From Candidatus Poribacteria bacterium (lineage in GTDB: Bacteria; Poribacteria; DTPJ01; WJIO01): 13,280 bases of DNA. The position numbers were made by a program, and so were the translations under genes. The DNA is taken from positions 1-13,280 of the forward strand of contig WJIO01000241.1 of assembly GCA_014730235.1 (NCBI GenBank), written 5' to 3'. Below, one piece after another: positions 137 to 13,280 of this stretch (position 1 is the stretch's first letter; the number at the start of each line of letters is the position of its first letter). The notes under the pieces are model-generated. The model did not search any database. It saw only the letters and a program-made list of their open reading frames with translations, and had not been told where the DNA came from.

Positions 137-991
137 TCATATATTTATCAATGGAACATTTAGCTCTGTTTCAATTGAATTATAGAAATTGATTGATCTA
201 CCGAAAGAAAATGGATTAAATATTAGTTTTGTTTCTCCAAACGGGACGATGTCAACAGTTCCTATATGAATTCGAAGATCCAATTTATTGTAAGGTCTAT
301 TCCAATAAAAATTGCCAGAGATATTAGCTATAGAAACACCATACTTAAGGGATGATATACCCCCTGTTTCAAATTTAAACCTTCCTGTTTCCCTAAGCGT
401 TGCTGAAATAAATCTTGCATAAGGTGTAAATTCAAATGTTTCAAAACCAAACCCAAGTAAGTTGGTTTCCTTTTGGTATGTAAATCCTAACCTATAAATA
501 AAGGTAATAGTTCCTCCATTAAAGGTTGATGGATCATTCCAAACAGAACGGGCATTATAATACCACACTTTCCTCATAGCTGTACTAACCTCGCTGATGA
601 TATAATCTCGATCATTTGGATCCGGATTCAGGTTTGGATTGATATAAACTTGCTCCCAGCGGTATTTCAGACTTCGATTGTAATTACCGGTTTGAAGATT
701 CCATTTAATTTCTTGATAACCATCAGTAAATCCATATTGAGACAACGCATTAGCCATCATCATATCATATTCAAAATCATTCCTGGGACTATGAAGCGTC
801 CCATAACGTGGCCAGCTTATTCCGCCACCAGTACTGCCAGCTGGTCCTATATCATCCTGAATGCCACTTGCGGTTTGTGCCAGTATTCCGATTTTATACC
901 CGCTAGGGTCTGCGTATTTCAGGGGGTTGTTTAGGGCATATCGATAGTAGTAAGAACTGAAAATCACTAAACTCCAATTTTTATAAACCAT
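137..991 (-). CDS. Displaced Rhs C-terminal toxin tip (tip 5)
   Basis: This is a fragment of an Rhs protein, not a whole one. About 20 residues after the chosen ATG (989-991) it enters the end of the Rhs core (YRYALNNPLKYADPSGY), followed by about 115 residues almost identical to tip 4, up to KVWYY. After that the sequence is unique: about 140 residues rich in alternating polar and hydrophobic residues, suggesting beta strands, with no cysteine-rich or obvious nuclease motif. The outer-membrane-like look recalls the polymorphic toxin type 23 group, but I cannot confirm that. The ATG overlaps the end of the upstream lipoprotein gene by 11 bases, so it could be translated by coupling. A TTG at 997 is an alternative start. 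No open frame for an immunity gene follows in the 136 bases to the window edge. The Rhs N-terminal shell and export regions are absent, so on its own the product is probably not delivered; a silent donor cassette is the likeliest role. Confidence 0.75.
   Translation of the reverse strand: MVYKNWSLVIFSSYYYRYALNNPLKYADPSGYKIGILAQTASGIQDDIGPAGSTGGGISWPRYGTLHSPRNDFEYDMMMANALSQYGFTDGYQEIKWNLQTGNYNRSLKYRWEQVYINPNLNPDPNDRDYIISEVSTAMRKVWYYNARSVWNDPSTFNGGTITFIYRLGFTYQKETNLLGFGFETFEFTPYARFISATLRETGRFKFETGGISSLKYGVSIANISGNFYWNRPYNKLDLRIHIGTVDIVPFGETKLIFNPFSFGRSINFYNSIETELNVPLINI
557..953 (-). repeat. 397-bp direct repeat, copy in tip 5
   Basis: It matches 1725-2121 base for base apart from scattered substitutions, roughly 93-95% identical by eye, with a constant offset of 1168 and no indels. 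It codes for the end of the Rhs core plus the linker before the toxin domain. Identity stops abruptly at both edges, as expected of a recombination block. Confidence 0.9.
914..937 (-). repeat. Rhs-core scar, copy in tip 5
   Basis: A 24-base identical core, coding for ALNNPLKY at the end of the Rhs core, occurs four times in the window: 914-937, 2082-2105, 10569-10592 and 12004-12027. It marks where each displaced tip begins and is the obvious homology for tip exchange. Confidence 0.9.
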
Positions 992-1262
992 TACCAATCC
1001 GGATAACTACACTATCCTTCCTCGAAACAAAAACTCGAAAATGATCAGAATACCCTGATGGTGATAGGTAGAGCAACTCGTATTCATCAATATTAAACGA
1101 GTGTATAATAGTTTTTTCTGGATCTCCCATAATCCGTTTAACCTCGTCAAGTGTCATACCTACTTCAACCTTATTTATGTTTTCAGCATTACTTTTAGAA
1201 ACACCTGAAGAACAGCTGATAGTAAGTAAAAGTACCGTATATACAATGGCAAAGGTTTTCAT
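981..1262 (-). CDS. Putative immunity lipoprotein with SmpA/OmlA-like fold (immunity 4)
   Basis: The 93-residue product starts with a lipoprotein signal peptide: MK, then a hydrophobic stretch, then a lipobox-like TISC with Cys17 as the lipidated residue. The mature part holds VEVGMTLDEVKRIMGDPEK, the hallmark opening of the SmpA/OmlA (BamE-type) fold, followed by strands ending in RVFVSRKDSVV. The ATG follows the TAA of the tip 4 toxin with no gap, and its own end overlaps the next tip by 11 bases, so all three are probably co-transcribed. Position and size point to the immunity protein of tip 4, held at the periplasmic face of a membrane. A housekeeping BamE role is unlikely in this setting. 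The immunity role is inferred from gene order. Confidence 0.7.
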   Translation of the reverse strand: MKTFAIVYTVLLLTISCSSGVSKSNAENINKVEVGMTLDEVKRIMGDPEKTIIHSFNIDEYELLYLSPSGYSDHFRVFVSRKDSVVIRIGNGL

Positions 1263-2282
1263 TTATCTATAAATTAGCCAATTATGAAACGATGTTGACC
1301 AATCTTTTGTGAATTTACCTGTATAGAAATAGTAAGTTCCAAATGAGGAACCTACCTTATTTGAATAAATATCTTGTCTGTCAAATGCACTACCTCTTAT
1401 ATCCTTGCCAAAATATGGTCCAAACCACTGAATCAACTCTATCCCAAGACCAAGCACGTTTCCCATTACTGGATTTCCCTGATAAACCATTGTTCCTCCA
1501 AAACCAACGACCATTACATGTCTCATGTCCATAATTCTTCCATCATTAGGATTTATTACCATTCTCATTGTAGGACCACCTGGCAATCCGTCTTTTCTTG
1601 GTTCCTGATTTATAATTTGAAAATATGATCTATCTCGATTCTCAATCCAAAAGTCTTGCACACTATAGACAGGCAATCCATGAGTTTTATTATATGGATT
1701 GCTATTTTGAGAAGTTAATGTTTCATAATACCATACTTTCCTCATAGCTGTACTAACCTCGCTGATGATGTAGTCTCGATCACTTGGGTCCGGATTCAGG
1801 TTTGGATTGATATAAACCTGCTCCCAGCGGTATTTCAGACTTCTATTGTACCTTCCTGATTGAAGATTCCATTTAACTTCCTGATAACCATCAGTAAATC
1901 CATATTGAGATAACGTATTAGCCATCATTATATCATATTCAAAATCGTTCCTGGGACTATGAAGCGTCCCATAGCGAGGCCAGCTAATTCCACCACCAGC
2001 ACTGCCAATTGGTCCGATGTCATCTTGAATGCCACTTGCGGTTTGTGCCAGTATTCCGATTTTATACCCGCTAGGGTCTGCGTATTTCAGGGGGTTGTTT
2101 AGGGCATATCGATAGCAGTAAACCCCCTTTGAGGTCGAGCTCGCGCAATAAATAACCCCATTTTCTTTGTACACACGGGTAAGTACAGGATCCTTTGTCT
2201 TCTGTTCGGCGACTGGATCCTGCATTACAAAATAACTGTACTGCTGAGCAACCGAGGCTGTATAATGGGACTCGCTAAACAT
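1263..2282 (-). CDS. Rhs C-terminal toxin tip (tip 4)
   Basis: The 339-residue frame has an unusual N-terminus. Its first 55 or so residues are unlike an Rhs core, then YCYRYALNNPLKYADPSGY enters the core end and linker shared with tip 5. The unique tip after KVWYY holds a segment with DGRIMDMRHVMVVG, an internal ELIQW and SAFDRQDIYSN near the C-terminus. These clustered Asp, His, Glu and Asn residues look like a conserved active-site set of an Rhs tip family, but I cannot name the enzyme. The start (ATG 2280-2282) lies where the non-coding left end of the island begins, so the first residues may be a junction product. The lipoprotein partner suggests action in the cell envelope. It lacks the Rhs shell and any delivery domain. 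Confidence 0.75.
   Translation of the reverse strand: MFSESHYTASVAQQYSYFVMQDPVAEQKTKDPVLTRVYKENGVIYCASSTSKGVYCYRYALNNPLKYADPSGYKIGILAQTASGIQDDIGPIGSAGGGISWPRYGTLHSPRNDFEYDIMMANTLSQYGFTDGYQEVKWNLQSGRYNRSLKYRWEQVYINPNLNPDPSDRDYIISEVSTAMRKVWYYETLTSQNSNPYNKTHGLPVYSVQDFWIENRDRSYFQIINQEPRKDGLPGGPTMRMVINPNDGRIMDMRHVMVVGFGGTMVYQGNPVMGNVLGLGIELIQWFGPYFGKDIRGSAFDRQDIYSNKVGSSFGTYYFYTGKFTKDWSTSFHNWLIYR
1725..2121 (-). repeat. 397-bp direct repeat, copy in tip 4
   Basis: Partner of 557-953. The copies are ungapped, differ mainly at synonymous-looking positions, and diverge completely after the codons for KVWYY and before those for YRYALNN. Confidence 0.9.
2082..2105 (-). repeat. Rhs-core scar, copy in tip 4
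   Basis: Identical 24-base core described at 914-937. Here it is preceded by an open frame with no stop, unlike the scars of tips 2 and 3. Confidence 0.9.
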
Positions 2283-2305
2283 CTATTATAAAGTTATGTT
2301 TTTTC

Positions 2306-2319
2306 TTTTCAGTTGAAAA
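2306..2319. repeat. TTTTCAnnTGAAAA palindrome
   Basis: A 14-base near-perfect inverted repeat, TTTTCAGTTGAAAA, 24 bases from the tip 4 start. Exact TTCAnnTGAA also occurs at 170-179, 4656-4665, 5199-5208 and 7206-7215, with a one-base variant at 5377-5386. About 0.2 would be expected in 13.3 kb of random sequence. Confidence 0.6.
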
Positions 2320-2455: not shown

Positions 2456-2588
2456 CTGCTTAACATAATGAGACATTATAGTCGCAACACGCAGAACTAA
2501 TGTTGGCTGTTCATTTGCAGGCGGTTCCGGATCTACAGTACCTGGTTCTCCCGGTGATTGGCCTATAATACGGCATTATGTTAAGCAG
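2456..2588. repeat. 133-bp element A bounded by inverted dif-like sites
   Basis: The outer arms CTGCTTAACATAATG (2456-2470) and CATTATGTTAAGCAG (2574-2588) are a perfect 15-base inverted repeat. After a 4-base unpaired step, ATTATAG (2475-2481) pairs with CTATAAT (2563-2569). Each end reads as a recombinase core site: TGCGACTATAA, 7 bases, TTATGTTAAGC on the minus strand at 2458-2486, and TTGGCCTATAA, 7 bases, TTATGTTAAGC on the plus strand at 2558-2586. The second arm resembles the XerD arm of dif. GCTTAAC and GTTAAGC also fit the RYYYAAC/GTTRRRY ends of integron attC sites, and 133 bp is within the usual attC range. A conserved inner segment at 2530-2551 is shared, inverted, with element B. 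Confidence 0.65.
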
Positions 2589-2674
2589 CCCCTTTGCCTG
2601 CCCGCATACCGTTATCACCGGGGTTTCATCAACCAAGCCAGGGAACTACGGGTTTGGGCGTGTTGGCGCGGGCG

Positions 2675-2807
2675 CTATTTAACATAATTGCCTTATAGGA
2701 CCCGGCTTGTATTTCAGGATGGAGAACTGGTAAGGCGTAGATCGTCGTTTTTGATTTGACCCGGTCAGTACCACCGGGCTACTATAAGATGCTGTTATGT
2801 TAAATAG
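2675..2807. repeat. 133-bp element B bounded by inverted dif-like sites
   Basis: It has the same length and design as element A. Outer arms CTATTTAACATAA (2675-2687) and TTATGTTAAATAG (2795-2807) are perfectly inverted; inner arms CTTATAG (2692-2698) and CTATAAG (2782-2788) pair across a short internal loop. The right end reads GGCTACTATAA, 7 bases, TTATGTTAAAT (2777-2805), and the left end the same on the minus strand with a 5-base spacer (2677-2703). TTATGTTAAAT equals the XerD arm of Escherichia coli dif, as I recall it. The inner segment 2721-2743 aligns with the reverse complement of 2530-2551, so A and B are diverged copies. No target-site duplication flanks either. Confidence 0.65.
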
Positions 2808-2937: not shown

Positions 2938-3234
2938 CTAGTAGGGCAGTTTTTCAGGATCCTGCCGGTTGTCCCAGAAGACAAGTAACTGCAATTCCTT
3001 CTTCCGTGGCCTTACCCGATAATACAAGGTATTGTACTTGGTGACAAATCCCTTTCTGACGTTCCGCTTTTTCCTGGATTCCTCGAACATCTCAGGGTTT
3101 TGCTTGAGTTGTTCCAGCAGACAATCAACCTCGCTAATGAAGTTTTGGGTTTCTTTTTCAGTCCAGGCTTTTTCCAGATAATCAAGGATTTTTAAATATG
3201 TATGCCTTGCTGTGGGTGTCCAGAGGATCTCCAT
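2938..3234 (-). CDS. ParE/RelE-family toxin of a type II toxin-antitoxin module
   Basis: The 98-residue product has the compact ParE/RelE layout: an N-terminal strand (MEILWTPTARHTYLKIL), two helices with EKETQNFISEVDCLLEQLKQNP, then strands RKGFVTKYNTLYYRV and ELQLLVFWDNRQDPEKL ending in the family's typical NRQDP-like tail. Such toxins either inhibit gyrase or cut mRNA on the ribosome; which applies here cannot be told. Its ATG overlaps the antitoxin's TAA by one base (TAATG), the usual antitoxin-first coupling. It sits at the 3' end of the recombinase gene block and probably stabilises the island by post-segregational killing. Confidence 0.85.
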   Translation of the reverse strand: MEILWTPTARHTYLKILDYLEKAWTEKETQNFISEVDCLLEQLKQNPEMFEESRKKRNVRKGFVTKYNTLYYRVRPRKKELQLLVFWDNRQDPEKLPY

Positions 3235-3485
3235 TAGTCCGGGTTGTATTTGTCCCGGACTTTTTTCATCACTTCCTCATGGGGTATCAGTTCTCCTCGA
3301 TCCGCCTCAGCAAGGCCTTTTTCGACAGCCGCCTTTTCAGCCTCACTGATCTCATCCCACCAGTCAGATCCCTTCTCTTTTTTAAATACCGCTTCCACCT
3401 TAGCCAGCACAGAAGGCTTTTCGGTATTTAGGATCATTTGGACCAACTCCAGTTTTTTCGCCTGTAGATTCATGATTGCCTTCAT
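3234..3485 (-). CDS. Antitoxin paired with the ParE/RelE toxin
   Basis: The product is 83 residues, or 79 from the second ATG at 3473. It is highly charged and helical, with the segment EKAAVEKGLAEADRGELIPHEEVMKKVRDKY at the C-terminus. This is the pattern of the 'addiction module component' antitoxins that sit in front of ParE/RelE toxins: a regular helix, then a short toxin-wrapping tail containing the G-x-x-x-P-H-E-E-V motif. No clear DNA-binding domain is visible in the first 40 residues. A Bacteroidota-type -7 box lies 9 bases before the first ATG, so the pair has its own promoter apart from the recombinases 40 bases upstream. Confidence 0.8.
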   Translation of the reverse strand: MKAIMNLQAKKLELVQMILNTEKPSVLAKVEAVFKKEKGSDWWDEISEAEKAAVEKGLAEADRGELIPHEEVMKKVRDKYNPD

Positions 3486-3526: not shown

Positions 3527-4417
3527 CTATCTCAAAGGATGGAACAGCTCCAGCTGGCGGGTAAGGTCCGTAAGATCCTGCAGGCGGTAGCTTTCCGTTG
3601 TACGGATGCTTTTATGACCTGCCATGTACTGCACCTGGCGGATGTTGTATCGTTTCAGCCAGCCCATGATCACACTGGAGCGTATCTGCCGGCTACCCGT
3701 AACCTGGGGATCGATCCTTTTTACCCCACGCATAATCCTTGCGACCATTTCACCGGGTTTTTTAACCATAAACAGGTAAGCCCCGGGATCCTGCTTCTGC
3801 ATCTGGATCAACTGCGGCCTGGTTTTGTCCAGATAGGTTTTCATAGCCAGGACCTGCATGGTGTGCATATCAAGGATCCGGGCATTGCTTTTCCTGCCGG
3901 ATGGCACATAGAGTGTCCCTTTTTCAAGGTTCAGGTGCGCAGGCTCCAGGCGGGATAGCTGCCCGCTGTCCAGGCCCTGGAATATCATCAGCCCCAGTAC
4001 CACCGTATCGCGCTGATGGATCAGCCTGGCACGGCTCGAGCGGTGGTGCCATAAGGGAAGGTTTGCAAAGGCCTGGTAGATTTTCTCCAACTGCTGCTGT
4101 GACAGCACCTGCGGCAATGCCCTTCGGCCCGCCTGACGAAGCCGGATCCGCCGGAAAACATTATGGGTGGCACAACCGATCTCTACCAGGTAATCGAAGT
4201 AAATCCTTATGGAGTTTACCATCCCTGCGATGCTCTGATGCTTAATGCCTCGCTTGCGCTGGTGATCTATAAATTCCAGGACCTGGTTGTAGGTGATACC
4301 CTGCGGCTCGATGCTCTGGAGAGTGCACCATGATAAAAGCTGGCTTATATGGCTGTCCTGGACCTTTATGCTGCTCTCGGAGTATCCGCCGGCCTGGCGG
4401 TAACGCTTAAAACTCAT
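3527..4417 (-). CDS. Tyrosine recombinase with degenerate active site
   Basis: The 296-residue product keeps the two-domain layout: an N-terminal core-binding region (about 1-95) and a catalytic region (about 110-285). The motif that carries the first catalytic Arg reads QGLDSGQLSRL, with Asp150 in place of Arg. Lys176 is present in GRKSNAR. Box II reads RQIRSS, so Arg243 replaces the His while Arg246 remains. His268 in AGHKS and Tyr277 in TTESYR are intact. It may be an accessory subunit that binds DNA and supplies only some chemistry, acting with the intact recombinase upstream. I chose the ATG at 4415-4417, which overlaps the upstream stop (TAA) by 11 bases and gives a normal N-terminus; a start at 4459 would add 14 unlikely residues. 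A related Bacteroidota family may have lost the box II His generally, so the Asp is the more telling change. Confidence 0.85.
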   Translation of the reverse strand: MSFKRYRQAGGYSESSIKVQDSHISQLLSWCTLQSIEPQGITYNQVLEFIDHQRKRGIKHQSIAGMVNSIRIYFDYLVEIGCATHNVFRRIRLRQAGRRALPQVLSQQQLEKIYQAFANLPLWHHRSSRARLIHQRDTVVLGLMIFQGLDSGQLSRLEPAHLNLEKGTLYVPSGRKSNARILDMHTMQVLAMKTYLDKTRPQLIQMQKQDPGAYLFMVKKPGEMVARIMRGVKRIDPQVTGSRQIRSSVIMGWLKRYNIRQVQYMAGHKSIRTTESYRLQDLTDLTRQLELFHPLR

Positions 4418-5363
4418 TGTCCAGGTGAGTGTAGATCTGCGTGCTTTCCAGGGACTCATGGCCCAGGAACTGCTGGATCATCTCGATCTGCATGCCCGAC
4501 TGCATCAGGTGGGTGGCAATGGAGTGGCGAAGCGTGTGCAGCGAGGGGCGCTTTTCCTGCAAACTGACACTGCCGCTTCGTTTGACAAGTTTGTGGAGAC
4601 TATGCGTCAGGGCCTGGTCGCTGCACCGCCCGCCGAACTGGTTTACAAAAAAGCCTTCAGTTGAAAAAGAAGATGTCGATACCAAAAAGGGTCTTCCCAC
4701 CAGCAGGTACTCAGTGATATGTTCCCGGCTCCTTAAAGATACCGGCACGTAGCGCTCCTTGCTGCCCTTACCCTTGCGAACAAGGATCAGGCCTCGCTGG
4801 GTAAGCACATCCGATACATCCAACCCTGTTCCCTCGCTTCTTCTCAGTCCGCATCCGTAATAGATTCCCAGCATGGCCCTGTCACGCTGTGAGATGGCCC
4901 GTTGCAGAGCCCGGGGCTCAGACCGGGTAAAATGCCCCTGGTAATATGTGGCATCATACAGGGACGTGATATCCCCCCTGGTGAGGATCCCACGGGGATG
5001 GTAGTTTTCTTCAAGATAGGACAGGTTGTCCAGTGTAAAGGACCCGGCGGTGCCGCTCTGGCGAAGGTATTCAAAGAACTTATTGACCGAGCTTACTCCC
5101 ACGTTGATCGTGGCACTGCTCAGGCCCGCTCCATGCAACTTGTTCTGCCGGCGTTTCAGGTAACGTACAAAGCGGCCCGCCTTATACGCTGTTATCTTTT
5201 CAACTGAAGTAATCCCTGAGCGCTCCAGGTACAACAAAAACTCCCGGATGTTCCTTTTTCTTGTCTGGACCGTCGAAGGGCTGTACCCGAGGGCTTGCAG
5301 CCAGCGTAAAAAATCCTTTTCAAGAGTAATAAACTGTTTGCTGTGGATCTGCTCGGTAATCAT
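4407..5363 (-). CDS. XerC/D-like tyrosine recombinase (intact active site)
   Basis: The 318-residue product matches the phage-integrase family in length and order. The SAM-like core-binding domain is about 10-115, and the catalytic domain has Arg174 (CGLRRSEG), Lys199 (KGKGSKER), His276 and Arg279 (HTLRHS), His302 (LGHES) and the nucleophile Tyr311 (IYTHLD). It would cut and rejoin DNA at paired core sites; the dif-like sites at 2456-2807 are candidates. A variable loop at 228-237 contains SSFSTE, encoded by a 19-base sequence that recurs exactly in the primase gene. The gene overlaps the degenerate recombinase by 11 bases, so the two are translationally coupled and probably made in similar amounts. 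The ATG is preceded by a T-rich leader without a Shine-Dalgarno sequence, as usual in Bacteroidota. Confidence 0.92.
   Translation of the reverse strand: MITEQIHSKQFITLEKDFLRWLQALGYSPSTVQTRKRNIREFLLYLERSGITSVEKITAYKAGRFVRYLKRRQNKLHGAGLSSATINVGVSSVNKFFEYLRQSGTAGSFTLDNLSYLEENYHPRGILTRGDITSLYDATYYQGHFTRSEPRALQRAISQRDRAMLGIYYGCGLRRSEGTGLDVSDVLTQRGLILVRKGKGSKERYVPVSLRSREHITEYLLVGRPFLVSTSSFSTEGFFVNQFGGRCSDQALTHSLHKLVKRSGSVSLQEKRPSLHTLRHSIATHLMQSGMQIEMIQQFLGHESLESTQIYTHLDNEF
4656..4674. repeat. 19-bp repeat in the recombinase gene
   Basis: TTCAGTTGAAAAAGAAGAT is identical to 7206-7224 inside the primase gene. In both it is read on the minus strand in the same frame, as SSFSTE, in a loop or linker. 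It includes the TTCAnnTGAA palindrome. Confidence 0.8.
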
Positions 5364-5436
5364 TGGTTTGAAAAATCTCAGTTGAAAAAAAAGTAAAGTG
5401 TGAGGCGGGTAAAAAAGGGGTGCTGCTTGTCCCCCC

Positions 5437-5454
5437 TGTGAAGCTTGTGAAACT
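5437..5454. repeat. Iteron-like repeats, distal pair
   Basis: TGTGAAGCT (5437-5445) and TGTGAAACT (5446-5454) are adjacent direct repeats. The second extends into TGTGAAACTC (5446-5455), perfectly inverted as GAGTTTCACA (5496-5505), bracketing the terminator-like hairpin. Confidence 0.65.
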
Positions 5455-5460
5455 CACTTT

Positions 5461-5493
5461 AAAAAGCCCCGCAAGCCTTGCCCTCAGAGGGCT
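5461..5493 (-). terminator. Intrinsic terminator after the primase gene
   Basis: Read on the minus strand, AGCCC (from 5493) pairs with GGGCT (to 5465) and is followed by TTTTT. The interior folds further: CCCTCAGAGGG (5481-5491) and GCAAGCCTTGC (5471-5481). It lies 60 bases past the primase stop and 98 before the recombinase start, so the recombinases may depend on read-through or their own promoter. Confidence 0.6.
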
Positions 5494-5513
5494 GGGAGTT
5501 TCACATTGTAGGG

Positions 5514-5554
5514 TGTGAAGCTCATGTGAACCCCTGTGAAGCTATGTGAAGCTC
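5514..5554. repeat. Iteron-like repeats, four tandem copies
   Basis: TGTGAAGCTC (5514), TGTGAACCCC (5525), TGTGAAGCTA (5535) and TGTGAAGCTC (5545) follow each other every 10-11 bases, i.e. once per helical turn on the same face. The last copy runs into the primase stop codon. Such spacing beside a replication protein gene is typical of iterons bound by an initiator, making this a candidate origin or control site. Confidence 0.65.
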
Positions 5555-8300
5555 ATGATACGCAGGAGGTTAGAGTCTTTGTTTTTAGCTTTTCCACCAG
5601 GCTGTCCAGCATATTGACCCCGTTTTTTAACATTTCATAGTCGTCCCAGACGCAGACCTCATACTCGTTGCCCGTTTTATTGCTGCGGCTTCTACACTTG
5701 ATAAACCCTCTTCCTTCCAGATCATCCAGAAAGCGTTTCAGCTGCATGGGATGAAGGCGAAAATGTTTTCGGATATCTTTGGCATAAAACACCGGGTTGC
5801 CCTCCTGGTTTTCATATAAAAGGGCTTTGAGGTTTTCAAAAAAGCCGCGGGTCTTACCGCCAAGCTCATCGGATTTTCTTAAAAGGCTTTCTTTGCTCAA
5901 AAAATTTGCCCACTCCACATCTTCCAGGGTGGTAGTAACGTAGGTATTGCCTTCCCTGTCCGTGGTTTCTTCCCTTTGTCTCTGGTTCCACAGCGTAATG
6001 GCTTTTATTAGGGTCAGGTAGTGGTTCTTTGTCCGCATCTTTTTAAAAACATGCGGCGGCAGTTCCAACGCAGGTGCAAAAGGTATGATCACCTCCATGG
6101 GGCGGATCAAGAGCTGGCAGGCTTTTAACATGCGGATCGCATCCTCATGATGCTGCATGTTGACAAGCCCTGCCGCCACCCTTCCCTGGTACTCCAATAC
6201 CTCGGCCTCATGACGGGGGTTCTCCTGGATCTGGATCAAAAAACTGCGGTTGGCATTGTCCTCATAGATCTTATCGCGCGTGGTGGCTCCGGCAACACAT
6301 ACCGGTCCTTCAACATGAAGGTACACCTGCTGGCTTTCGCCCGTGCGGCTGTTGGTGCGCGTAGAGAAGCGGGAGATCTCCTGGTTGCTCATAAGCTCGC
6401 GAAGCGGCAGCAAGGCATTGTAGGCTCCGTCCAGGTCCTCCTGAAGCAGGATCTTATGGGTTAAAAAATCTTTCGGGGTGTAATAAAGCGTGTTTTCGCT
6501 AAGCGAGGTGGTAACATGGATATGCTGGCGGGGTACGCACCCGGCAACCCCCTGCAGAAGATAGGTCTTGCCGGATCCGCTGCTGCCCATCACGATGGCA
6601 TGCAGAGGATTTTTAAAAAAGCGGGTCAGAAAGATAAAAAACAACAGTGCAGCATTGTCCTGCTGGCCGATCAGTCCCAGGTTGCCAAAAAGGGCATGGG
6701 TACGGCGGGTAAGGTCCGCAGAGCTCATAAACCGGGAGGCCCTTTGCATCTGACCCGAGGGAAAACTGTCCTTGCCCTTTTCGGCCTTCAGCTGCTCACA
6801 TCGTCGTTTTTCCTCCCGCTTTTGCTGCCGGTAACCCTCCAAAGCGCGCGTAAGGCCCGCTATGGCATTTCCAACTACACTGCTGCTGATCTCCAGCTTT
6901 TCCGAGGCCTGCTTTATGAGGCGGTCACTCTGGCTATGGCTGTAAAGATCCGCCGTATCACGGAAGCTGGCATACTCGTTGCCCCGAAGATGGATATGTA
7001 GCGTCGCACGAAGGCGGCTTACCGTATGAGTCTCGATTCCGCCCCAAAGGGTGATCTGCAGGCGGTCAGTCTCATAGCGCATATAATCCGCGCTGACCTT
7101 AAGCTTTGGAGTAGGTTCAGTGGAGATTTCCGGTGCTGGCACAGAAGGCTTGTCCTCTTTTTTATTTTCAATTGAGTTTTCGTTTTTTATTTCCGATGAT
7201 TCCGTTTCAGTTGAAAAAGAAGATTCCGGTTCCAGATGGTAGGTTCTGCGGTTTTCCAAAAGGTGAGTGAAGATCTCAGGGCTATGCAGCTGAAGCAGGC
7301 TGTTGACATCTTCCGCTCTGGGAGTATCCACCACACTGACTTTTATATCCTTGTTGGTTATAAAAAAATGCGCTGAGGTGCGTTTTATAGCCTGGCGGCC
7401 GGCAGCATCCCCATCAAAAAACAGGATTATCTCTTTAAGATCCTTCAGCTCTGCGATCGCTGTTCGGTGTTCTGCGGTAAAACCATTCGTACCGTACAAG
7501 GCCAGTATCCCGTATTGCTTTGGTATCTCCGGCAATTGCTCAAGGGTAGCTGCATCAATAATGGCTTCTGTAATAATCAGTCTTGAGACCCCCGGATCCG
7601 GATAGCCGGGATACAGCCCCCGCTGATCACCCTCCAGGTAATGGTGCTCCTGCTTTGTGGTATGACGGCCGTACAGGCTGACAACCTGGCCCGAAGGGTC
7701 CAGCAAAGGGAACACAAGGCATCCATTAAACCGGGTGTAGTAATTCCCCTCCCTCCCAAACTTATCCGGCTTGATCAGCCCGACCTGAAGTAGTGCCTGC
7801 TTCTGGTCCTTTGTGATTCCTTTGCGTTTATGAAGGGTGCCCGCATCGTAACCTACCGAGAGGTTTTTGTAATCCAACGATCGGGAGTCCAGATAATCGG
7901 TGGCCTGTTTAGGTCTGGTGGCCAGGCTGCGGACAAAATGAGTGAAAGATTTCGTGAGGATCTCTGTTCGTTGTTCAGGAGTTGTGGTAGAGTTGGTGGG
8001 AAGGAGTTTCACCCTATGGGGTGCAGGCTCTACGTGCCCGGCCAGATTCTTGGCCTTCAAAATAGCCTCATGTTTGGTGATCCCCTCCATCCGCATAATA
8101 AAATCCACCTGGTCGCCGCTGCCGGCCTCGCAGTTACTCGAAAAACAGGTCCAGGTACCGGTCTCAGGGTAAACCTGCATGCTCGGGGTCTTGTCATCAT
8201 GAAAAGGGCAGTGAAGGCGGTGGTTGCGGTCGCTCTGAAGGTGGTAGTGCTTCAGAACCGTGTTGATGGGAAGGTGTTGTTTGATTTCTGTTAACTCCAT
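5553..8300 (-). CDS. CHC2 zinc-finger/TOPRIM primase-type protein with P-loop ATPase domain
   Basis: The 915-residue product reads as a mobile-element replication protein. Residues 31-57 form a CHC2-type zinc finger (Cys31, His34, Cys52, Cys57; CPFHDDKTPS is the DnaG signature). A TOPRIM domain follows, with Glu245 in ITEAIIDA and Asp296/Asp298 in FFDGDAAG. Residues 350-400 are a Ser/Glu/Lys-rich linker holding SSFSTE, the 19-base repeat. A P-loop ATPase comes next, with Walker A GSSGSGKT (572-579) and a likely Walker B in KILLQEDLDG (616-624), then a winged-helix-like region (about 820-890). Primer synthesis plus unwinding or loading is the likely role, but a catalytic primase core between zinc finger and TOPRIM is only weakly visible. 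It is divergent from the XRE gene and its start region carries operator copies, so the repressor probably controls it. Iteron-like repeats at its 3' end fit a role in replication. Confidence 0.88.
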   Translation of the reverse strand: MELTEIKQHLPINTVLKHYHLQSDRNHRLHCPFHDDKTPSMQVYPETGTWTCFSSNCEAGSGDQVDFIMRMEGITKHEAILKAKNLAGHVEPAPHRVKLLPTNSTTTPEQRTEILTKSFTHFVRSLATRPKQATDYLDSRSLDYKNLSVGYDAGTLHKRKGITKDQKQALLQVGLIKPDKFGREGNYYTRFNGCLVFPLLDPSGQVVSLYGRHTTKQEHHYLEGDQRGLYPGYPDPGVSRLIITEAIIDAATLEQLPEIPKQYGILALYGTNGFTAEHRTAIAELKDLKEIILFFDGDAAGRQAIKRTSAHFFITNKDIKVSVVDTPRAEDVNSLLQLHSPEIFTHLLENRRTYHLEPESSFSTETESSEIKNENSIENKKEDKPSVPAPEISTEPTPKLKVSADYMRYETDRLQITLWGGIETHTVSRLRATLHIHLRGNEYASFRDTADLYSHSQSDRLIKQASEKLEISSSVVGNAIAGLTRALEGYRQQKREEKRRCEQLKAEKGKDSFPSGQMQRASRFMSSADLTRRTHALFGNLGLIGQQDNAALLFFIFLTRFFKNPLHAIVMGSSGSGKTYLLQGVAGCVPRQHIHVTTSLSENTLYYTPKDFLTHKILLQEDLDGAYNALLPLRELMSNQEISRFSTRTNSRTGESQQVYLHVEGPVCVAGATTRDKIYEDNANRSFLIQIQENPRHEAEVLEYQGRVAAGLVNMQHHEDAIRMLKACQLLIRPMEVIIPFAPALELPPHVFKKMRTKNHYLTLIKAITLWNQRQREETTDREGNTYVTTTLEDVEWANFLSKESLLRKSDELGGKTRGFFENLKALLYENQEGNPVFYAKDIRKHFRLHPMQLKRFLDDLEGRGFIKCRSRSNKTGNEYEVCVWDDYEMLKNGVNMLDSLVEKLKTKTLTSCVS
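7206..7224. repeat. 19-bp repeat in the primase gene
   Basis: Exact copy of 4656-4674, here in the codons of the low-complexity linker (residues 360-365). Confidence 0.8.
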
Positions 8301-8326: not shown

Positions 8327-8339
8327 GAACTATCAGACA
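8327..8339 (+). promoter_or_regulatory. Operator-like site O1
   Basis: GAACTATCAGACA. It lies directly downstream of the primase -7 box, where the transcript should begin, so a bound repressor would block the leftward promoter. Confidence 0.65.
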
Positions 8340-8370
8340 CAAAAATATATTATATTTCCAAATCTGTCAA
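8340..8370 (-). promoter_or_regulatory. Promoter of the primase gene
   Basis: On the minus strand TTG (8370-8368) and TATTTTTG (8347-8340) are 20 bases apart, fitting the Bacteroidota -33/-7 arrangement. The ATG is about 40 bases downstream, after an A/T-rich leader. Confidence 0.55.
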
Positions 8371-8389
8371 GTAATATCCGCTTTATTTA

Positions 8390-8402
8390 TGTCTGATATT
8401 TC
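8390..8402 (-). promoter_or_regulatory. Operator-like site O2
   Basis: GAAATATCAGACA on the minus strand, inverted relative to O1 and O3. It ends two bases before the -7 box of the XRE promoter. Confidence 0.65.
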
Positions 8403-8404
8403 CG

Positions 8405-8412
8405 TAAATTTG
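8405..8412 (+). promoter_or_regulatory. -7 box of the XRE operon promoter
   Basis: TAAATTTG matches TAnnTTTG exactly and lies 38 bases before the preferred ATG. The -33 region is T-rich without a clear TTG. Confidence 0.5.
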
Positions 8413-8422
8413 CTCTATTGTT

Positions 8423-8435
8423 GAACTATCAGACA
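8423..8435 (+). promoter_or_regulatory. Operator-like site O3
   Basis: GAACTATCAGACA, identical to O1. It lies in the leader just after the expected start of the XRE transcript, suggesting autoregulation. Confidence 0.65.
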
Positions 8436-8450
8436 TTTTTTAGGCAAAAT

Positions 8451-8786
8451 ATGAACACAGGCAACATTATTACCAAGCTAAGAAGAGAGAAAGGATGGTC
8501 TCAGACTGATCTCTCAAAACAATGCGGAGTATCCCGCGAGATGGTCGGTAAATACGAACGTAACGAAGCCGTCCCTTCTATCGAAGCGGCAAAAAAAATT
8601 GCAGATACGTTCGGTGTGTCTCTGGATTACCTGGTGGGAGAAGGTATCAATGCCCATTTTGATAAAAAAACATTACAGAGGATACAAGACCTGGAACTGC
8701 TCGAAGAAGAGAAAAAAAAGACTCTCTTTGATTTGATGGATACATATATCCGTGATGCTAAAACAAGGCAGGCATATTCGGCCTGA
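8451..8786 (+). CDS. XRE-family repressor
   Basis: The 111-residue product has a classical Cro/CI-type helix-turn-helix over residues 5-60: IITKLRREKGWSQTDLSKQC, then VSREMVGKYERNEAVPS, closing with FGVSLDYLVGEG. The C-terminal 45 residues are helical and charged (LELLEEEKKKTLFDLMDTYI), a probable dimerisation segment. I chose the ATG at 8451 because the residues from an upstream start at 8418 would cover operator O3 and sit at the expected transcription start. It probably represses both the leftward replication gene and its own operon through the GAAnTATCAGACA sites, much as phage and conjugative-element repressors do. It is the first gene of a three-gene operon. Confidence 0.88.
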   Translation: MNTGNIITKLRREKGWSQTDLSKQCGVSREMVGKYERNEAVPSIEAAKKIADTFGVSLDYLVGEGINAHFDKKTLQRIQDLELLEEEKKKTLFDLMDTYIRDAKTRQAYSA

Positions 8787-9704: not shown

Positions 9705-10538
9705 CTATTTTCTAAAAAATGGTGTAATATATGTACGTGTATCCCAATTTGTATAGCCAATGTCCATACTCCATTTTGTTGGTAAGCTAAGACCAAATAT
9801 GTTATAGTCAGTTTCTATATTATAACCGTAAAATGGAGAGTCAATTTCCACTCCTACCAGAACACCTAAAGAAAACGATGTGCCAACTCCATCAAGATCT
9901 TCAATAAAAAATTGCCTATCCAAGCGTCTCCTGATTGTATATGATATCTCTGGGGCTATTGACAAGGAAAAACCACCTTCATCTGGTCTTGGAGTTTTGT
10001 ATGTTTGATATAAACCAATACCTGTTAGGCTCTTATCTGCAATCAAGCCGACATCATATCCTACACCCCAACCTGGAAATCGCCCGAATGCAGGTATTGC
10101 AAATTCTAATGAGACACCTGCTAATATGGGATCCCATATATCAGGATTTGATCGATTGGGGGCATGATTATTGCCTTGGATATGATCGAACGGATTAACT
10201 GCAGAATTTGTTCCCGGCACAAAAAATTCACCCGTCAAACGGTCATACTCAAAGTAATGCCCCCGATTACCAAATCTGTTCTGGTAGTCAAAGTAGCCCA
10301 GGTTTCTTCGCTTTGAATAACTGGTAAACTGTGAGATAAATCCATAAATCGCGTTGGTGGCTTCTTCAGAACCATAGCCAGTGCTTCCCCAGGAATCATG
10401 ACGATTCACAAAGCCTATCCCCTCGTTCAGCGCATCCCGGCCGGAAGCAAACGGTTCAAAACCACCACCTGAGGTCCATGTACCGCCAAAGGGGCCACTT
10501 CTTTCAAAAAGTGTCGAGGTAAAATTCCTTACTGCCAA
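9705..10538 (-). CDS. Displaced Rhs C-terminal toxin tip (tip 3)
   Basis: The open frame reaches from 10610 but has no ATG except near its C-terminus; the marked start is a TTG. A TAA (10611-10613) stands in frame just before the Rhs scar (SVNYTYALNNPLKYTDPSGY), so this is a cassette cut from an Rhs gene and likely silent unless recombined. After a Gly-rich part comes a linker shared with tip 1 (RHDSWGSTGYGSEEATNAIY to VNPFDH), then a unique C-terminal domain. That domain is about 150 residues of alternating Gly/aromatic strands ending in TYITPFFRK, with the look of a membrane beta-barrel and perhaps related to polymorphic toxin type 23. Function uncertain; the membrane-anchored neighbour suggests an envelope target. 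Confidence 0.7.
   Translation of the reverse strand: MAVRNFTSTLFERSGPFGGTWTSGGGFEPFASGRDALNEGIGFVNRHDSWGSTGYGSEEATNAIYGFISQFTSYSKRRNLGYFDYQNRFGNRGHYFEYDRLTGEFFVPGTNSAVNPFDHIQGNNHAPNRSNPDIWDPILAGVSLEFAIPAFGRFPGWGVGYDVGLIADKSLTGIGLYQTYKTPRPDEGGFSLSIAPEISYTIRRRLDRQFFIEDLDGVGTSFSLGVLVGVEIDSPFYGYNIETDYNIFGLSLPTKWSMDIGYTNWDTRTYITPFFRK
10183..10405 (-). repeat. 223-bp repeat, copy in tip 3
   Basis: Matches 13058-13280 with a constant offset of 2875 and no indels, and continues beyond the window edge in the other copy. It encodes the linker before the toxin domain and ends abruptly after the codons for VNPF. Confidence 0.85.
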
Positions 10539-10568
10539 TGATATTAAAAGATATCCTGAGGGGTCGGT

Positions 10569-10592
10569 GTATTTCAGGGGGTTGTTTAGGGC
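10569..10592 (-). repeat. Rhs-core scar, copy in tip 3
   Basis: Identical 24-base core described at 914-937. An in-frame TAA lies 18 bases upstream on the coding strand. Confidence 0.9.
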
Positions 10593-10621
10593 ATAGGTGT
10601 AATTAACAGATTAAATTCTCG

Positions 10622-11110
10622 TTAATCATTGAATGAATATATCAAGATTTTTTGATTTGTTCTATCAATTATGGTAATTCTATAACTATCATTATTGCTG
10701 AATTTTTTAAACCGATAGTACCCAGAAGTTTCAGTTTTGGTAGAATCAAATAGGACATTATCAGACTTATTTAAAGATTTAACATCCATGTAAATAAAAT
10801 ACTTCTCAGGTAAAGTCTCAGGAAGTTTCTCTGATATTGGTAGCTCATTAAAATCTTCAAGCTTGTTTTTTCGAATTAGTTCTGAATACTGATCTTGGGT
10901 GAGTTTTAAAATAATTTCTGTGGAACCCTCACCAGTGAATGAATAAAAGGAACTATTCTTTTCGAAATTAACTCTATTTGAAACCTTAATACCACCAATC
11001 AAATTAACAACTTTAGTTGGGCTATAAGGAGGTAAATATCTGTACAGAACTATGTAAATCAATGCAAGGGTTACAATTACATATATGAGGATTAATACTT
11101 TTTTCTTCAT
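10622..11110 (-). CDS. Putative immunity protein, membrane-anchored (immunity 2)
   Basis: The 162-residue product begins MKKK followed by a strong transmembrane segment (about 4-24), then a polar, Lys- and Ser-rich domain of about 135 residues expected in the periplasm. This topology matches the colicin M immunity protein Cmi, an N-terminally anchored periplasmic protein, which agrees with the colicin M-like motif in tip 2. It starts 11 bases after that gene. I see no sequence motif tying it to Cmi, so the parallel is topological only. Confidence 0.65.
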   Translation of the reverse strand: MKKKVLILIYVIVTLALIYIVLYRYLPPYSPTKVVNLIGGIKVSNRVNFEKNSSFYSFTGEGSTEIILKLTQDQYSELIRKNKLEDFNELPISEKLPETLPEKYFIYMDVKSLNKSDNVLFDSTKTETSGYYRFKKFSNNDSYRITIIDRTNQKILIYSFND

Positions 11111-11121
11111 CCAGATCTTTA

Positions 11122-11949
11122 TTAAGGATATCTAATATTGAACGGTCTATCTGTCAAGTTAAACCAACTCGCCATATCAATTAATTCGGTTTTCAATTGT
11201 GCATCAAAGAAACTATTCCATCGAATAGGATAAGGATTAAAATCATATACATCAAAAAAACCTATAGGATTTCCTGACAGGTCATAATACATTCTTGCAG
11301 TTCCGAATACACGTGAGTATTCAGAATCATAAAAACTTACATAACGTCGAATTGCTTCTTGATTATTATATATCACCCTGGTGCCCATACCTAAACCATT
11401 CGCATGTTGGGCAATATCATTGAATCGATTTGTAGAAAGTGTGACATCACCACCACCGGTCCAATAATTCGCGAACATTAGTTGGCTAAATTCTGAGCCT
11501 GCTCGCTTCTGTATTTGTCTTCCCAGCCAATTTAGCTCACTGAGATTTGGAATTTGATTGAATGGATCAACTTCCAAAATACCAACAGTAATGAAACCAT
11601 AGTTGCCATTGCCAATCCATTTACCATTGCTATTGAGGAATGCGGTCTCATACATGACTCTAATGCCTGTACCCAATCCTGAATATGAACCATTCCTTGC
11701 GGAGGAATACCTGCCAGAAGCACCGAAAAAATACGTTGAAGAGAAGTCTGAGGCATTCATTGTGCCCCCGGTATATCTATTGATGTAACTGCCAGATCCC
11801 CGGTCATAAGACCACCCCTGGGAAGGATGACTCGATATCAGGCCTCCGATTACAAAAGCCTGATGCCTCATTTTCATCGATTCCCACCAGTCAATAGATG
11901 GGCTGGATCCACCACCACCCCATCTGTTCAGATCCGGATAGTCATCCAT
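11122..11949 (-). CDS. Displaced Rhs C-terminal toxin tip with colicin M-like motif (tip 2)
   Basis: From the ATG the product is 275 residues. The frame runs back another 29 codons through the Rhs scar (YRYALNNPLKYTDPSGY) to a TGA at 12037-12039; other scars have a sense codon there. Near the C-terminus DVYDFNPYPIR (233-243) reproduces the spacing of the essential residues of colicin M as I recall them (D, Y, D, then H-R), with Asp233, Tyr235, Asp236 and Arg243 in place but Ile242 where His is expected. Colicin M-type enzymes cut lipid II in the periplasm and so block wall synthesis; the membrane-anchored partner fits that. The missing His could mean altered chemistry, an inactive copy or a related family. 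Without the Rhs core it is probably a stored cassette, unless started at the internal ATG. Confidence 0.65.
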   Translation of the reverse strand: MDDYPDLNRWGGGGSSPSIDWWESMKMRHQAFVIGGLISSHPSQGWSYDRGSGSYINRYTGGTMNASDFSSTYFFGASGRYSSARNGSYSGLGTGIRVMYETAFLNSNGKWIGNGNYGFITVGILEVDPFNQIPNLSELNWLGRQIQKRAGSEFSQLMFANYWTGGGDVTLSTNRFNDIAQHANGLGMGTRVIYNNQEAIRRYVSFYDSEYSRVFGTARMYYDLSGNPIGFFDVYDFNPYPIRWNSFFDAQLKTELIDMASWFNLTDRPFNIRYP

Positions 11950-12003
11950 AAGGCCGCTTGGAGTTTGTGCCAGTATTCCGATTTTATATCCTGAGGGGTC
12001 GGT

Positions 12004-12027
12004 GTATTTCAGGGGGTTGTTTAGGGC
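12004..12027 (-). repeat. Rhs-core scar, copy in tip 2
   Basis: Identical 24-base core described at 914-937. The bases just upstream read TGA TAT CGA in frame where tip 4 has TGC TAT CGA, so one base change or junction makes the stop. About 100 bases to the right, up to the end of immunity 1, hold no gene. Confidence 0.9.
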
Positions 12028-12147
12028 GTATCGATATCAGTAAAGCCAAAATCAAACAACAACTGGCTTCATAGATCGAATTCCTGAGCTTGATAAATAT
12101 TAACATATCCCAGTCGTGCTTCTCGCTATACGGCTCCTGATTAAAAT

Positions 12148-12543
12148 TTATTCAGAAAAATTTATCGAAGTAATAATAATCATTAGCACAAAAGTGCAAA
12201 TAACGTAAAGCACTGTCAATATACTGCTTAGAAGTTTTTTCCTTCTGTTCTCACTATTATATTTTTTAATTATTTCTCTGTATTTTTTTTTATACATCAA
12301 AATCAAATAACTGATAATAATAATCCCTGCGTTATATCCAAATACAGATAACTTATTACTTAACAAACCATGAATCTGATATTTTCGCCAAATCAAGATA
12401 TTAATTGTAGCAACATTAAATATTAATAACAAGCAAAACGCTATAAAAGCTAAATATTCAGGCATTCTATGTCCGTCAGGCGTAAAGATTTTCTCTGTTG
12501 CTTCAAAGAATCGTAATAACCGGTAGTATAAATAATATATCAT
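12148..12543 (-). CDS. Putative immunity protein, integral membrane (immunity 1)
   Basis: The 131-residue product has three hydrophobic segments at about 29-52, 66-84 and 104-127, separated by Lys/Arg-rich loops, so it should span the inner membrane three times. It starts 9 bases after tip 1. Multi-pass immunity proteins usually protect against pore-forming toxins, such as the channel-forming colicins, which agrees with the Gly-rich hydrophobic end of tip 1. The family is not recognised. Confidence 0.65.
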   Translation of the reverse strand: MIYYLYYRLLRFFEATEKIFTPDGHRMPEYLAFIAFCLLLIFNVATINILIWRKYQIHGLLSNKLSVFGYNAGIIIISYLILMYKKKYREIIKKYNSENRRKKLLSSILTVLYVICTFVLMIIITSINFSE

Positions 12544-12552
12544 TAATTTAGA

Positions 12553-13280
12553 CTATTTTCCACCAAAATACCATGGGTTCTGATTTACTCCACCTACAAC
12601 ATTATTCATATACTGTTGATATTGCCACTCGAATACTGTTTGCCACCCCCCGGGAACAAAGGTATCAACACCAAAATAAAAACTTGAAGCAAATGCTCCC
12701 GAAAATCCGGCAAATCCTAGCACAGTAAATCCAGTATTTGTCCAAAATTTACCAGCAGACATAGTTGGATTTGGTCCACTTGTCTGAATATAATCATGCC
12801 CAATGCTCATCGCTGCAAATAAACCACCACCAATCCTGACTCCCTTTGTGACTTTCCCAAGTTTTAAGAACTCATCAGTATAATCTAAACCTAATCCAAG
12901 TTTATTACTTCTGTGTTGTAGAAATTCAACATTGGAACGTATAAAACCAAGTTTTTCTAGCGACATCGTCACGTTGAATCCGGCTACCCATAAACCTGCT
13001 GAGATTGGATCTATGGATTCGCCTTCTGGATTGCTATTTGATGATGGATTCATCATATGTGCAAAGGGATTAACAATTGTATTTGTCCCTGGCACAAAAA
13101 ATTCACCCGTCAACCGGTCATACTCAAAGTAATGCCCCTGATTTCCAAATCTGTTCCGGTAGTCAAAGTAGCCCAGGTTTCTTCGCTTTGAATAACTGGT
13201 AAACTGAGAGATAAATCCATAAATCGCATTTGTGGCTTCTTCAGAACCATAGCCAGTGCTTCCCCAGGAATCATGACGAT
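12553..13280 (-). CDS. Rhs C-terminal toxin tip, possibly pore-forming (tip 1, 5' end outside window)
   Basis: The frame is open from the right edge (first full codon 13276-13278) to the TAG at 12553, about 241 residues, so the start lies outside. The first 70 residues are the linker shared with tip 3, ending VNPFAH. The unique part includes hydrophobic, Gly/Ala-rich stretches such as IGGGLFAAMSIG and TGFTVLGFAGFSGAFASSFY, able to form a membrane hairpin, which with a three-span immunity partner suggests a pore former. It could be the end of the full-length Rhs protein or another displaced tip; the window cannot tell. Confidence 0.7.
   Translation of the reverse strand, partial: RHDSWGSTGYGSEEATNAIYGFISQFTSYSKRRNLGYFDYRNRFGNQGHYFEYDRLTGEFFVPGTNTIVNPFAHMMNPSSNSNPEGESIDPISAGLWVAGFNVTMSLEKLGFIRSNVEFLQHRSNKLGLGLDYTDEFLKLGKVTKGVRIGGGLFAAMSIGHDYIQTSGPNPTMSAGKFWTNTGFTVLGFAGFSGAFASSFYFGVDTFVPGGWQTVFEWQYQQYMNNVVGGVNQNPWYFGGK
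13058..13280 (-). repeat. 223-bp repeat, copy in tip 1 (continues outside)
   Basis: Partner of 10183-10405, with only scattered substitutions. Confidence 0.85.

What the first reader, a model, noticed from the sequence alone, without database searches (positions are those of the whole stretch)
4656..7224. Identical 19-bp in-frame sequence in two unrelated genes, part of a wider TTCAnnTGAA set
TTCAGTTGAAAAAGAAGAT occurs at 4656-4674 and 7206-7224, encoding SSFSTE both times, in a variable loop of the recombinase and in the primase linker. Related palindromes lie at 170, 2306, 5197 and 5377. Placement at tolerant positions recalls small palindromic elements that insert in frame into genes, as in Rickettsia; a protein-binding site is the alternative.
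Basis: partly seen in the sequence, partly recalled or inferred. Interest (0 to 1): 0.65.

Follow-up and report, generated by a model that had tools for sequence, protein, structure and literature searches.

The report
Repeated control site in Rhs-tip elements
The 19-base repeat is two copies of a short palindromic DNA site that a family of mobile elements carrying toxin tips keeps several times per element, sometimes hidden inside its own genes; it looks like a protein-binding site and not a piece of DNA that jumped into those genes.

Summary
The 19-mer occurs only at 4656 and 7206 in the 5.53-Mb genome, and TTCAnnTGAA is about 12-fold enriched in the window while the rest of the genome is at background. 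The insertion reading is wrong. The window holds a member of an apparently undescribed family of Rhs-tip-carrying elements (Rhs tip, immunity gene, Cro/CI-type regulator, DnaG-like primase plus ATPase, two tyrosine recombinases). In 50 of 51 relatives with the primase domain the palindrome recurs, usually as TTTTTTYTTTCAnnTGAAA, at stereotyped places: the primase linker, recombinase genes, and about 1 kb after the second recombinase, just before the next displaced Rhs tip. In 24 relatives lacking the primase domain it is near background (3 of 24). Inside the recombinases it adds no length. It is read in two frames, even at the same spot of the primase, so selection acts on the DNA. Terminal copies often sit 9-13 bp upstream of a Bacteroidetes-type TAnnTTTG promoter box, some followed by a boxA-like sequence; coding copies never do. 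Best explanation: a dyad operator with one promoter copy and auxiliary copies inside genes. A primase-recognised replication site is the main rival. The binding protein is unknown.

The parts
7206..7224 (-). Site copy in the primase/ATPase linker (residues about 359-365); coding strand ATCTTCTTTTTCAACTGAA
   Evidence: the same linker position carries the site in most full-primase relatives
4656..4674 (-). Site copy inside the first tyrosine recombinase (residue about 233), identical 19 bp to the linker copy
   Evidence: no length change relative to homologues; this position was found only in the window's element
5377..5386 (-). Imperfect copy (CTCAGTTGAA) just upstream of the first recombinase start, with a T-tract on the coding strand
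   Evidence: L135 (UBA5235 relative) has a perfect copy at the equivalent place
5199..5208 (+). Site copy in the first recombinase (residue about 52), opposite orientation, weaker flanks
   Evidence: Fulvivirga/Ekhidna-type relatives have a copy at residue 56-63
2308..2317 (-). Terminal copy (TTTTCTGTTTTCAACTGAAAAGAAAAAACA on the minus strand), upstream of the next Rhs tip
2289..2296 (-). TAACTTTA, a -7-box-like sequence 11 bp downstream of the terminal copy
5553..8300 (-). DnaG-like primase (CHC2 zinc finger, TOPRIM) fused to a C-terminal ATPase-like domain
   Evidence: for the primase part; the ATPase reading rests on a Walker-type GSSGSGKT seen in the translation
4407..5363 (-). First tyrosine recombinase (Xer-like)
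3527..4459 (-). Second tyrosine recombinase (Xer-like)
8418..8786 (+). Cro/CI-type HTH regulator; the likely start codon lies within the ORF, near 8452
8331..8435 (.). Three TATCAGACA copies (8331, 8390 inverted, 8427) between regulator and primase: a likely operator of the regulator, unlike the TTCAnnTGAA site
2456..2807 (.). Two inverted-repeat structures of 133 bp (2456-2588 and 2675-2807, stems containing TTAACATAA): candidate recombinase substrates
1263..2282 (-). Displaced Rhs C-terminal tip downstream of the terminal site
   Evidence: weak Rhs core match, E 0.006, below the family cut-off

Best explanation
The repeat is a DNA-level dyad site, consensus TTTTTTYTTTCA-nn-TGAAA(A/G)AAA, usually kept 1-5 times per element by a family of Rhs-tip-carrying mobile elements. 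Shown: it recurs across many host genera, at stereotyped positions, in coding and non-coding DNA, in two reading frames, and without adding length to the recombinases. Inferred: a sequence-specific protein binds it. The terminal copy sits at about -20 to -35 of a promoter-like sequence that reads toward the next displaced Rhs tip, so it would act as an operator or activator site there. The copies inside the primase and recombinase genes would act as auxiliary sites (looping or roadblock, as with a secondary operator inside a gene). The element's own Cro/CI regulator is unlikely to be the binder. The primase-ATPase protein or a host factor is more likely.
For: An unbiased scan of all 4+4 gapped palindromes puts TTCAn2TGAA far ahead in primase-bearing elements: 114 against 10.4 expected, in 43 of 43 non-redundant elements. 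It is present in 50 of 51 primase-bearing and 3 of 24 primase-less elements. Positions are stereotyped: primase residues about 350-374, rec1 56-63, rec2 53-55 or 133-138, end region about +1 kb. Coding and terminal copies share the same T-tract consensus. No insertion in recombinases. Two reading frames, including a frame switch at the same primase site, S-x-E against QLK in L122. Terminal copies: TAnnTTTG-like box in 28 of 51 clusters against 4.5 expected, boxA-like GTTCWTTGA in 16; coding copies 0 of 46 for both. The site-to-box spacing is 9-13 bp in 33 of 39 cases. Regulator recognition helices vary while the site does not, and the window's regulator gene is flanked by a different repeated sequence, TATCAGACA.
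Against: No binding protein is identified and no binding or expression was measured. Roughly half of the terminal clusters lack a recognisable -7 box. The link to the primase domain rests on about 3 changes on the tree and 2-3 independent contrasts, so it may be lineage history. Site counts used the exact palindrome, which makes the core columns look invariant. One tandem element (L194) has only a poorly flanked match or none. The operator reading was chosen after seeing the promoter-like context.
Confidence: 0.5

Rival explanations
1. The site is recognised by the element's DnaG-like primase (replication origin or priming site), used while the excised element replicates; copies inside genes are dispersed priming or origin sites.
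For: Presence follows the CHC2/TOPRIM domain: 50/51 against 3/24. It is often close to the primase-ATPase junction. No other gene was found in all site-bearing elements besides regulator, primase-ATPase and recombinases. It usually occurs 2-5 times per element in both coding and non-coding DNA.
Against: Few independent gains or losses. The fixed 9-13 bp spacing to a promoter box has no obvious role in priming. Distant primase relatives L069, L070 and L073 show no analogous repeated palindrome (a partial run that stopped with an error).
Confidence: 0.27
2. The site is a crossover or accessory site for the element's two tyrosine recombinases.
For: Palindromic, several copies per element, some at borders between conserved and variable DNA (L057 against L117; L122). 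In the host's second, partial copy homology stops exactly at the T-tract.
Against: Primase-less elements keep both recombinases but lack the site. Tip borders map at the YRYGFNGKE codons, about 100 bp from the terminal site. The end regions of both element classes carry larger inverted repeats, some with ACATAA-type stems, that are better recombinase candidates. The L127 break leads into an IS-like sequence, not into element DNA.
Confidence: 0.12
3. It is an operator of the element's own Cro/CI-type regulator.
For: Dyad symmetry and the promoter-proximal terminal copy.
Against: Recognition helices are diverse and similar ones occur in site-bearing and site-less elements. The regulator-primase intergenic region usually lacks the site, and in the window has three TATCAGACA instead.
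Confidence: 0.06
4. Small palindromic elements inserted in frame into the two genes (Rickettsia-type).
For: In-frame, palindromic, in tolerant segments.
Against: No extra length in the recombinases, two reading frames, stereotyped positions across many genera, only about 20 bp of shared sequence, and genome-wide frequency at background.
Confidence: 0.02
5. Chance repetition in low-complexity sequence.
For: The primase linker is Ser/Glu/Lys rich and one flank is A/T rich.
Against: Shuffle tests and recurrence in 43 of 43 non-redundant elements.
Confidence: 0.01

Closest known systems
Auxiliary operators inside genes (e.g. lac O2 in lacZ; from general knowledge)
   Same: A dyad site repeated at a promoter and inside coding sequence of the same unit
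   Different: The binder is unknown, copies sit in several genes, and the site is conserved across a mobile element family
Primase-linked replication sites of small replicons (RSF1010 ssi sites, P4 ori/crr; from general knowledge)
   Same: Short repeated cis sites in elements that encode their own primase and helicase-like ATPase
   Different: Here the sites are T/A-flanked palindromes, several in coding DNA, and terminal copies are tied to a promoter-like sequence; no replication was shown
Rickettsia palindromic elements (reviewed in PMC10969869)
   Same: Palindromic sequence read in frame within unrelated genes
   Different: RPEs are about 150-bp insertions; this site is about 20 bp, adds no residues to the recombinases, occurs in two frames and in non-coding DNA
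Rhs tip displacement loci (PMC2935791)
   Same: Arrays of displaced Rhs C-terminal tips behind one core; that paper predicts an episomal pool of tips and circular intermediates
   Different: Here each tip lies next to a primase, two tyrosine recombinases and a conserved cis site; the cited work describes Enterobacteriaceae and homologous recombination

Membership tests
Rickettsia-type palindromic inserts | Insertion that lengthens the host protein relative to homologues | tested here: not met
   rec1 and rec2 segments have the same length with and without the site; the primase linker is too variable in length to decide
Rickettsia-type palindromic inserts | One reading frame giving a conserved peptide | tested here: not met
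   S-x-E frame and H/Q-L-K frame, both seen at the primase linker
Rickettsia-type palindromic inserts | Dispersed, genome-wide repeat family | tested here: not met
   the 19-mer only twice, the palindrome at background elsewhere
Dyad operator / protein-binding site | Conserved dyad sequence above chance | tested here: met
Dyad operator / protein-binding site | Fixed spacing to a promoter | tested here: met
   for terminal copies only, against a promoter-like box found by consensus; coding copies have no such box
Dyad operator / protein-binding site | A protein that binds it and changes transcription | not testable with these tools
   needs binding and expression assays
Primase-recognised replication site | Present only where the cognate primase is present | tested here: inconclusive
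   50/51 against 3/24, but only 2-3 independent contrasts
Primase-recognised replication site | Primer synthesis or replication depends on it | not testable with these tools
   biochemistry needed
Tyrosine-recombinase crossover site | Present wherever these recombinases act and located at the recombination junction | tested here: not met
   primase-less elements with both recombinases lack it; tip borders lie about 100 bp away; true excision junctions were not available
Rhs tip arrays | Several dissociated tips with a shared conserved start next to an Rhs locus | tested here: met
   repeated YALNNPLKY starts, 93% identical segments; the Rhs core itself lies outside this contig

The most novel reading that the evidence does not exclude
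A widespread, undescribed class of self-replicating elements carries Rhs toxin tips and inserts them at Rhs genes. It uses one conserved palindrome both as the control site of the promoter facing the displaced tip and as a replication or looping site written into its own genes, so that element replication and toxin-tip expression are coupled through one DNA-binding protein.
Probability: 0.2. Interest if true: 0.8.

Novelty: new variant of a known kind. Interest (0 to 1): 0.55.

Why it matters
Rhs tip exchange was proposed to draw on an episomal pool of tips (PMC2935791), but in the papers found here no carrier is named. These elements are a concrete candidate, and the shared site gives a handle: it marks members, points to a likely promoter facing displaced tips, and offers a direct test of what controls them. 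It also shows a regulatory-type DNA site kept inside several coding sequences by substitution rather than insertion.

Tried and rejected
Insertion reading: rejected by alignments and reading frames. Genome-wide repeat family: rejected. Regulator operator: unlikely. Site as tip crossover point: borders do not coincide. Another gene specific to site-bearing elements: ORF clustering found none universal; SymE-like and RelE/ParE-like ORFs are only in subsets. Viral contigs: no near relatives. Plasmid collection: only distant relatives, under 35% identity in the rows listed. The IS-like break at the T-tract in the host's second copy was considered as a recombination junction and set aside. The rRNA family search failed in the relatives; GTTCTTTGA was seen twice ahead of the 16S gene of the window's own assembly, which supports the boxA reading only weakly because that contig may be from another organism. 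The palindrome scan of distant relatives stopped with an error after five loci. A search for the inverted-repeat pattern of the end region found nothing because the pattern had one N too many.

Full report
Observation. The 19-mer is at 4656-4674 and 7206-7224, with no other near match in the window and no other exact copy in the genome. TTCAnnTGAA occurs five times in the window against 0.47 expected, while the whole genome holds 175, or 0.42 per window length. The signal is therefore local to this piece of DNA.

What surrounds it. On the minus strand the window reads: displaced Rhs tips with putative immunity genes, a Cro/CI-type regulator (opposite strand), a 915-residue protein with DnaG-like CHC2 and TOPRIM domains and a C-terminal ATPase-like domain, two Xer-like tyrosine recombinases, a ParE-like gene with a small upstream partner, an end region with two 133-bp inverted repeats, then further displaced tips. 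The ATPase assignment rests on a visible Walker-type GSSGSGKT and conservation, not on a Pfam hit. Relatives with the same layout occur in many Bacteroidetes-type genomes (Fulvivirga, Ekhidna, Chitinophaga, Hufsiella, Aquimarina and others), often in tandem: L117 has two 7.8-kb copies that are 99.9% identical over the stretch compared, and L214 has three copies 7.7 kb apart. Twelve of 195 genomes of the Chitinophaga family and 39 of 295 of the Fulvivirga family had a match.

The site is a family trait. Among 51 elements with the primase domain 50 contain TTCAnnTGAA, mean 2.6 per element; among 24 elements with only the ATPase half, 3 do, mean 0.2 (Fisher p about 2e-14, not corrected for relatedness). 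An unbiased scan of all 4+4 palindromes with nine spacings ranks it first by a wide margin in the first group (114 observed, 10.4 expected, 43 of 43 after removing near-identical copies) and not in the second. On a tree of the ATPase domain the primase domain changes state about three times, giving only 2-3 independent contrasts, so the link to the primase is suggestive, not proven.

Where it sits. Copies cluster at primase residues about 350-374, at residue 56-63 of the first recombinase in Fulvivirga/Ekhidna-type elements, at residues 53-55 or 133-138 of the second recombinase in others, and about 1 kb past the second recombinase. The window's copy at recombinase residue 233 is the only one seen at that spot. 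Coding and terminal copies share the consensus TTTTTTtTTTCAAnTGAAAaaa; the core columns are fixed by the search itself, the T-tract is not.

Not an insertion. In alignments of 73 first recombinases and of the second recombinases, site-bearing rows have no extra residues: window STSSFSTEGFFVN against LTRSGTSDDAFFIN; PFFLHLK replaces an ordinary helix segment; DLFSSTELEQL stands where others have DLFTTEELEKL-like sequence. The site is read as (F)S-x-E in most genes but as (F)H/Q-L-K in others, including both frames at the primase linker (DFFLSVES in L117, TFLFQLKKE in L122). A protein motif or an inserted coding palindrome would not do this; a selected DNA sequence would.

Terminal copies look like part of a promoter. 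In 28 of 51 terminal clusters a TAnnTT[TAG] box follows within 36 bp (4.5 expected from shuffles), and in 33 of 39 measured cases the gap from TGAA to the box is 9-13 bp. Coding copies have none in 46. TAnnTTTG is the Bacteroidetes promoter consensus (PMC6414381). In 16 terminal clusters GTTCWTTGA follows; this resembles the boxA of rRNA leaders, and GTTCTTTGA is found ahead of a 16S gene in the window's assembly. The promoter would read toward the next displaced tip. One primase-less element (L120, first copy) has the promoter box and boxA-like sequence without the site.

Which protein. The element's regulator is a poor candidate: its recognition helix varies between elements that share the site and is nearly the same in some that lack it, and in the window three TATCAGACA copies lie between regulator and primase. 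The recombinases are present in both element classes. No further gene common to all site-bearing elements was found. That leaves the primase-ATPase itself or a host protein; this step is inference.

Mechanism and limits. I favour a dyad control site with a promoter copy and auxiliary intragenic copies. A primase-recognised replication site is the main rival, and the two can be combined if the replication protein also controls the promoter. Nothing here measures binding, transcription or replication. That it is a selected DNA-level site I hold at about 0.93; the operator mechanism at about 0.5. No paper describing this element family or the site was found in the searches run, which cover open-licence papers only.

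Noticed in passing
window 2456-2588 and 2675-2807; end regions of L129, L193, L135, L067, L049, L125, L214, L218: Paired inverted repeats (stems of about 10-15 bp, often a second inner stem, spans about 85-170 bp, TTAACATAAT-like in several) in the end region of elements of both classes; they resemble attC or dif-type recombinase substrates.
   Followed up: partly
window 137-2282 and 9705-13280, minus strand: Array of displaced Rhs C-terminal tips, several sharing a conserved YALNNPLKY start and followed by a small putative immunity gene.
   Followed up: partly
terminal regions, e.g. L117 11988-12045, L130 12496-12570, L228 13415-13475 (element orientation): Promoter-like TAnnTTTG box followed by a boxA-like GTTCTTTGA ahead of displaced Rhs tips, suggesting transcription with antitermination.
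   Followed up: partly
between regulator and primase in relatives, e.g. L129 7767-8033, L126 6562-6873 (element orientation): SymE-like toxin ORF ending at the primase start (one sequence above the Pfam PF08845 cut-off, one just below); the ORF cluster holds 22 elements, 20 with the primase domain.
   Followed up: partly
L127 (own genome contig C342), about 3999-4070: Second, partial copy of the primase (86% DNA identity) whose homology stops exactly at the T-tract of the site, where an IS-like sequence begins.
   Followed up: partly
window 2938-3485, minus strand: ParE-like toxin gene with a small upstream ORF, a probable toxin-antitoxin pair inside the element.
   Followed up: no
L130 6460-7678 (element orientation): About 1.2 kb of extra DNA between the primase and ATPase halves, beginning right after three tandem site copies.
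   Followed up: no
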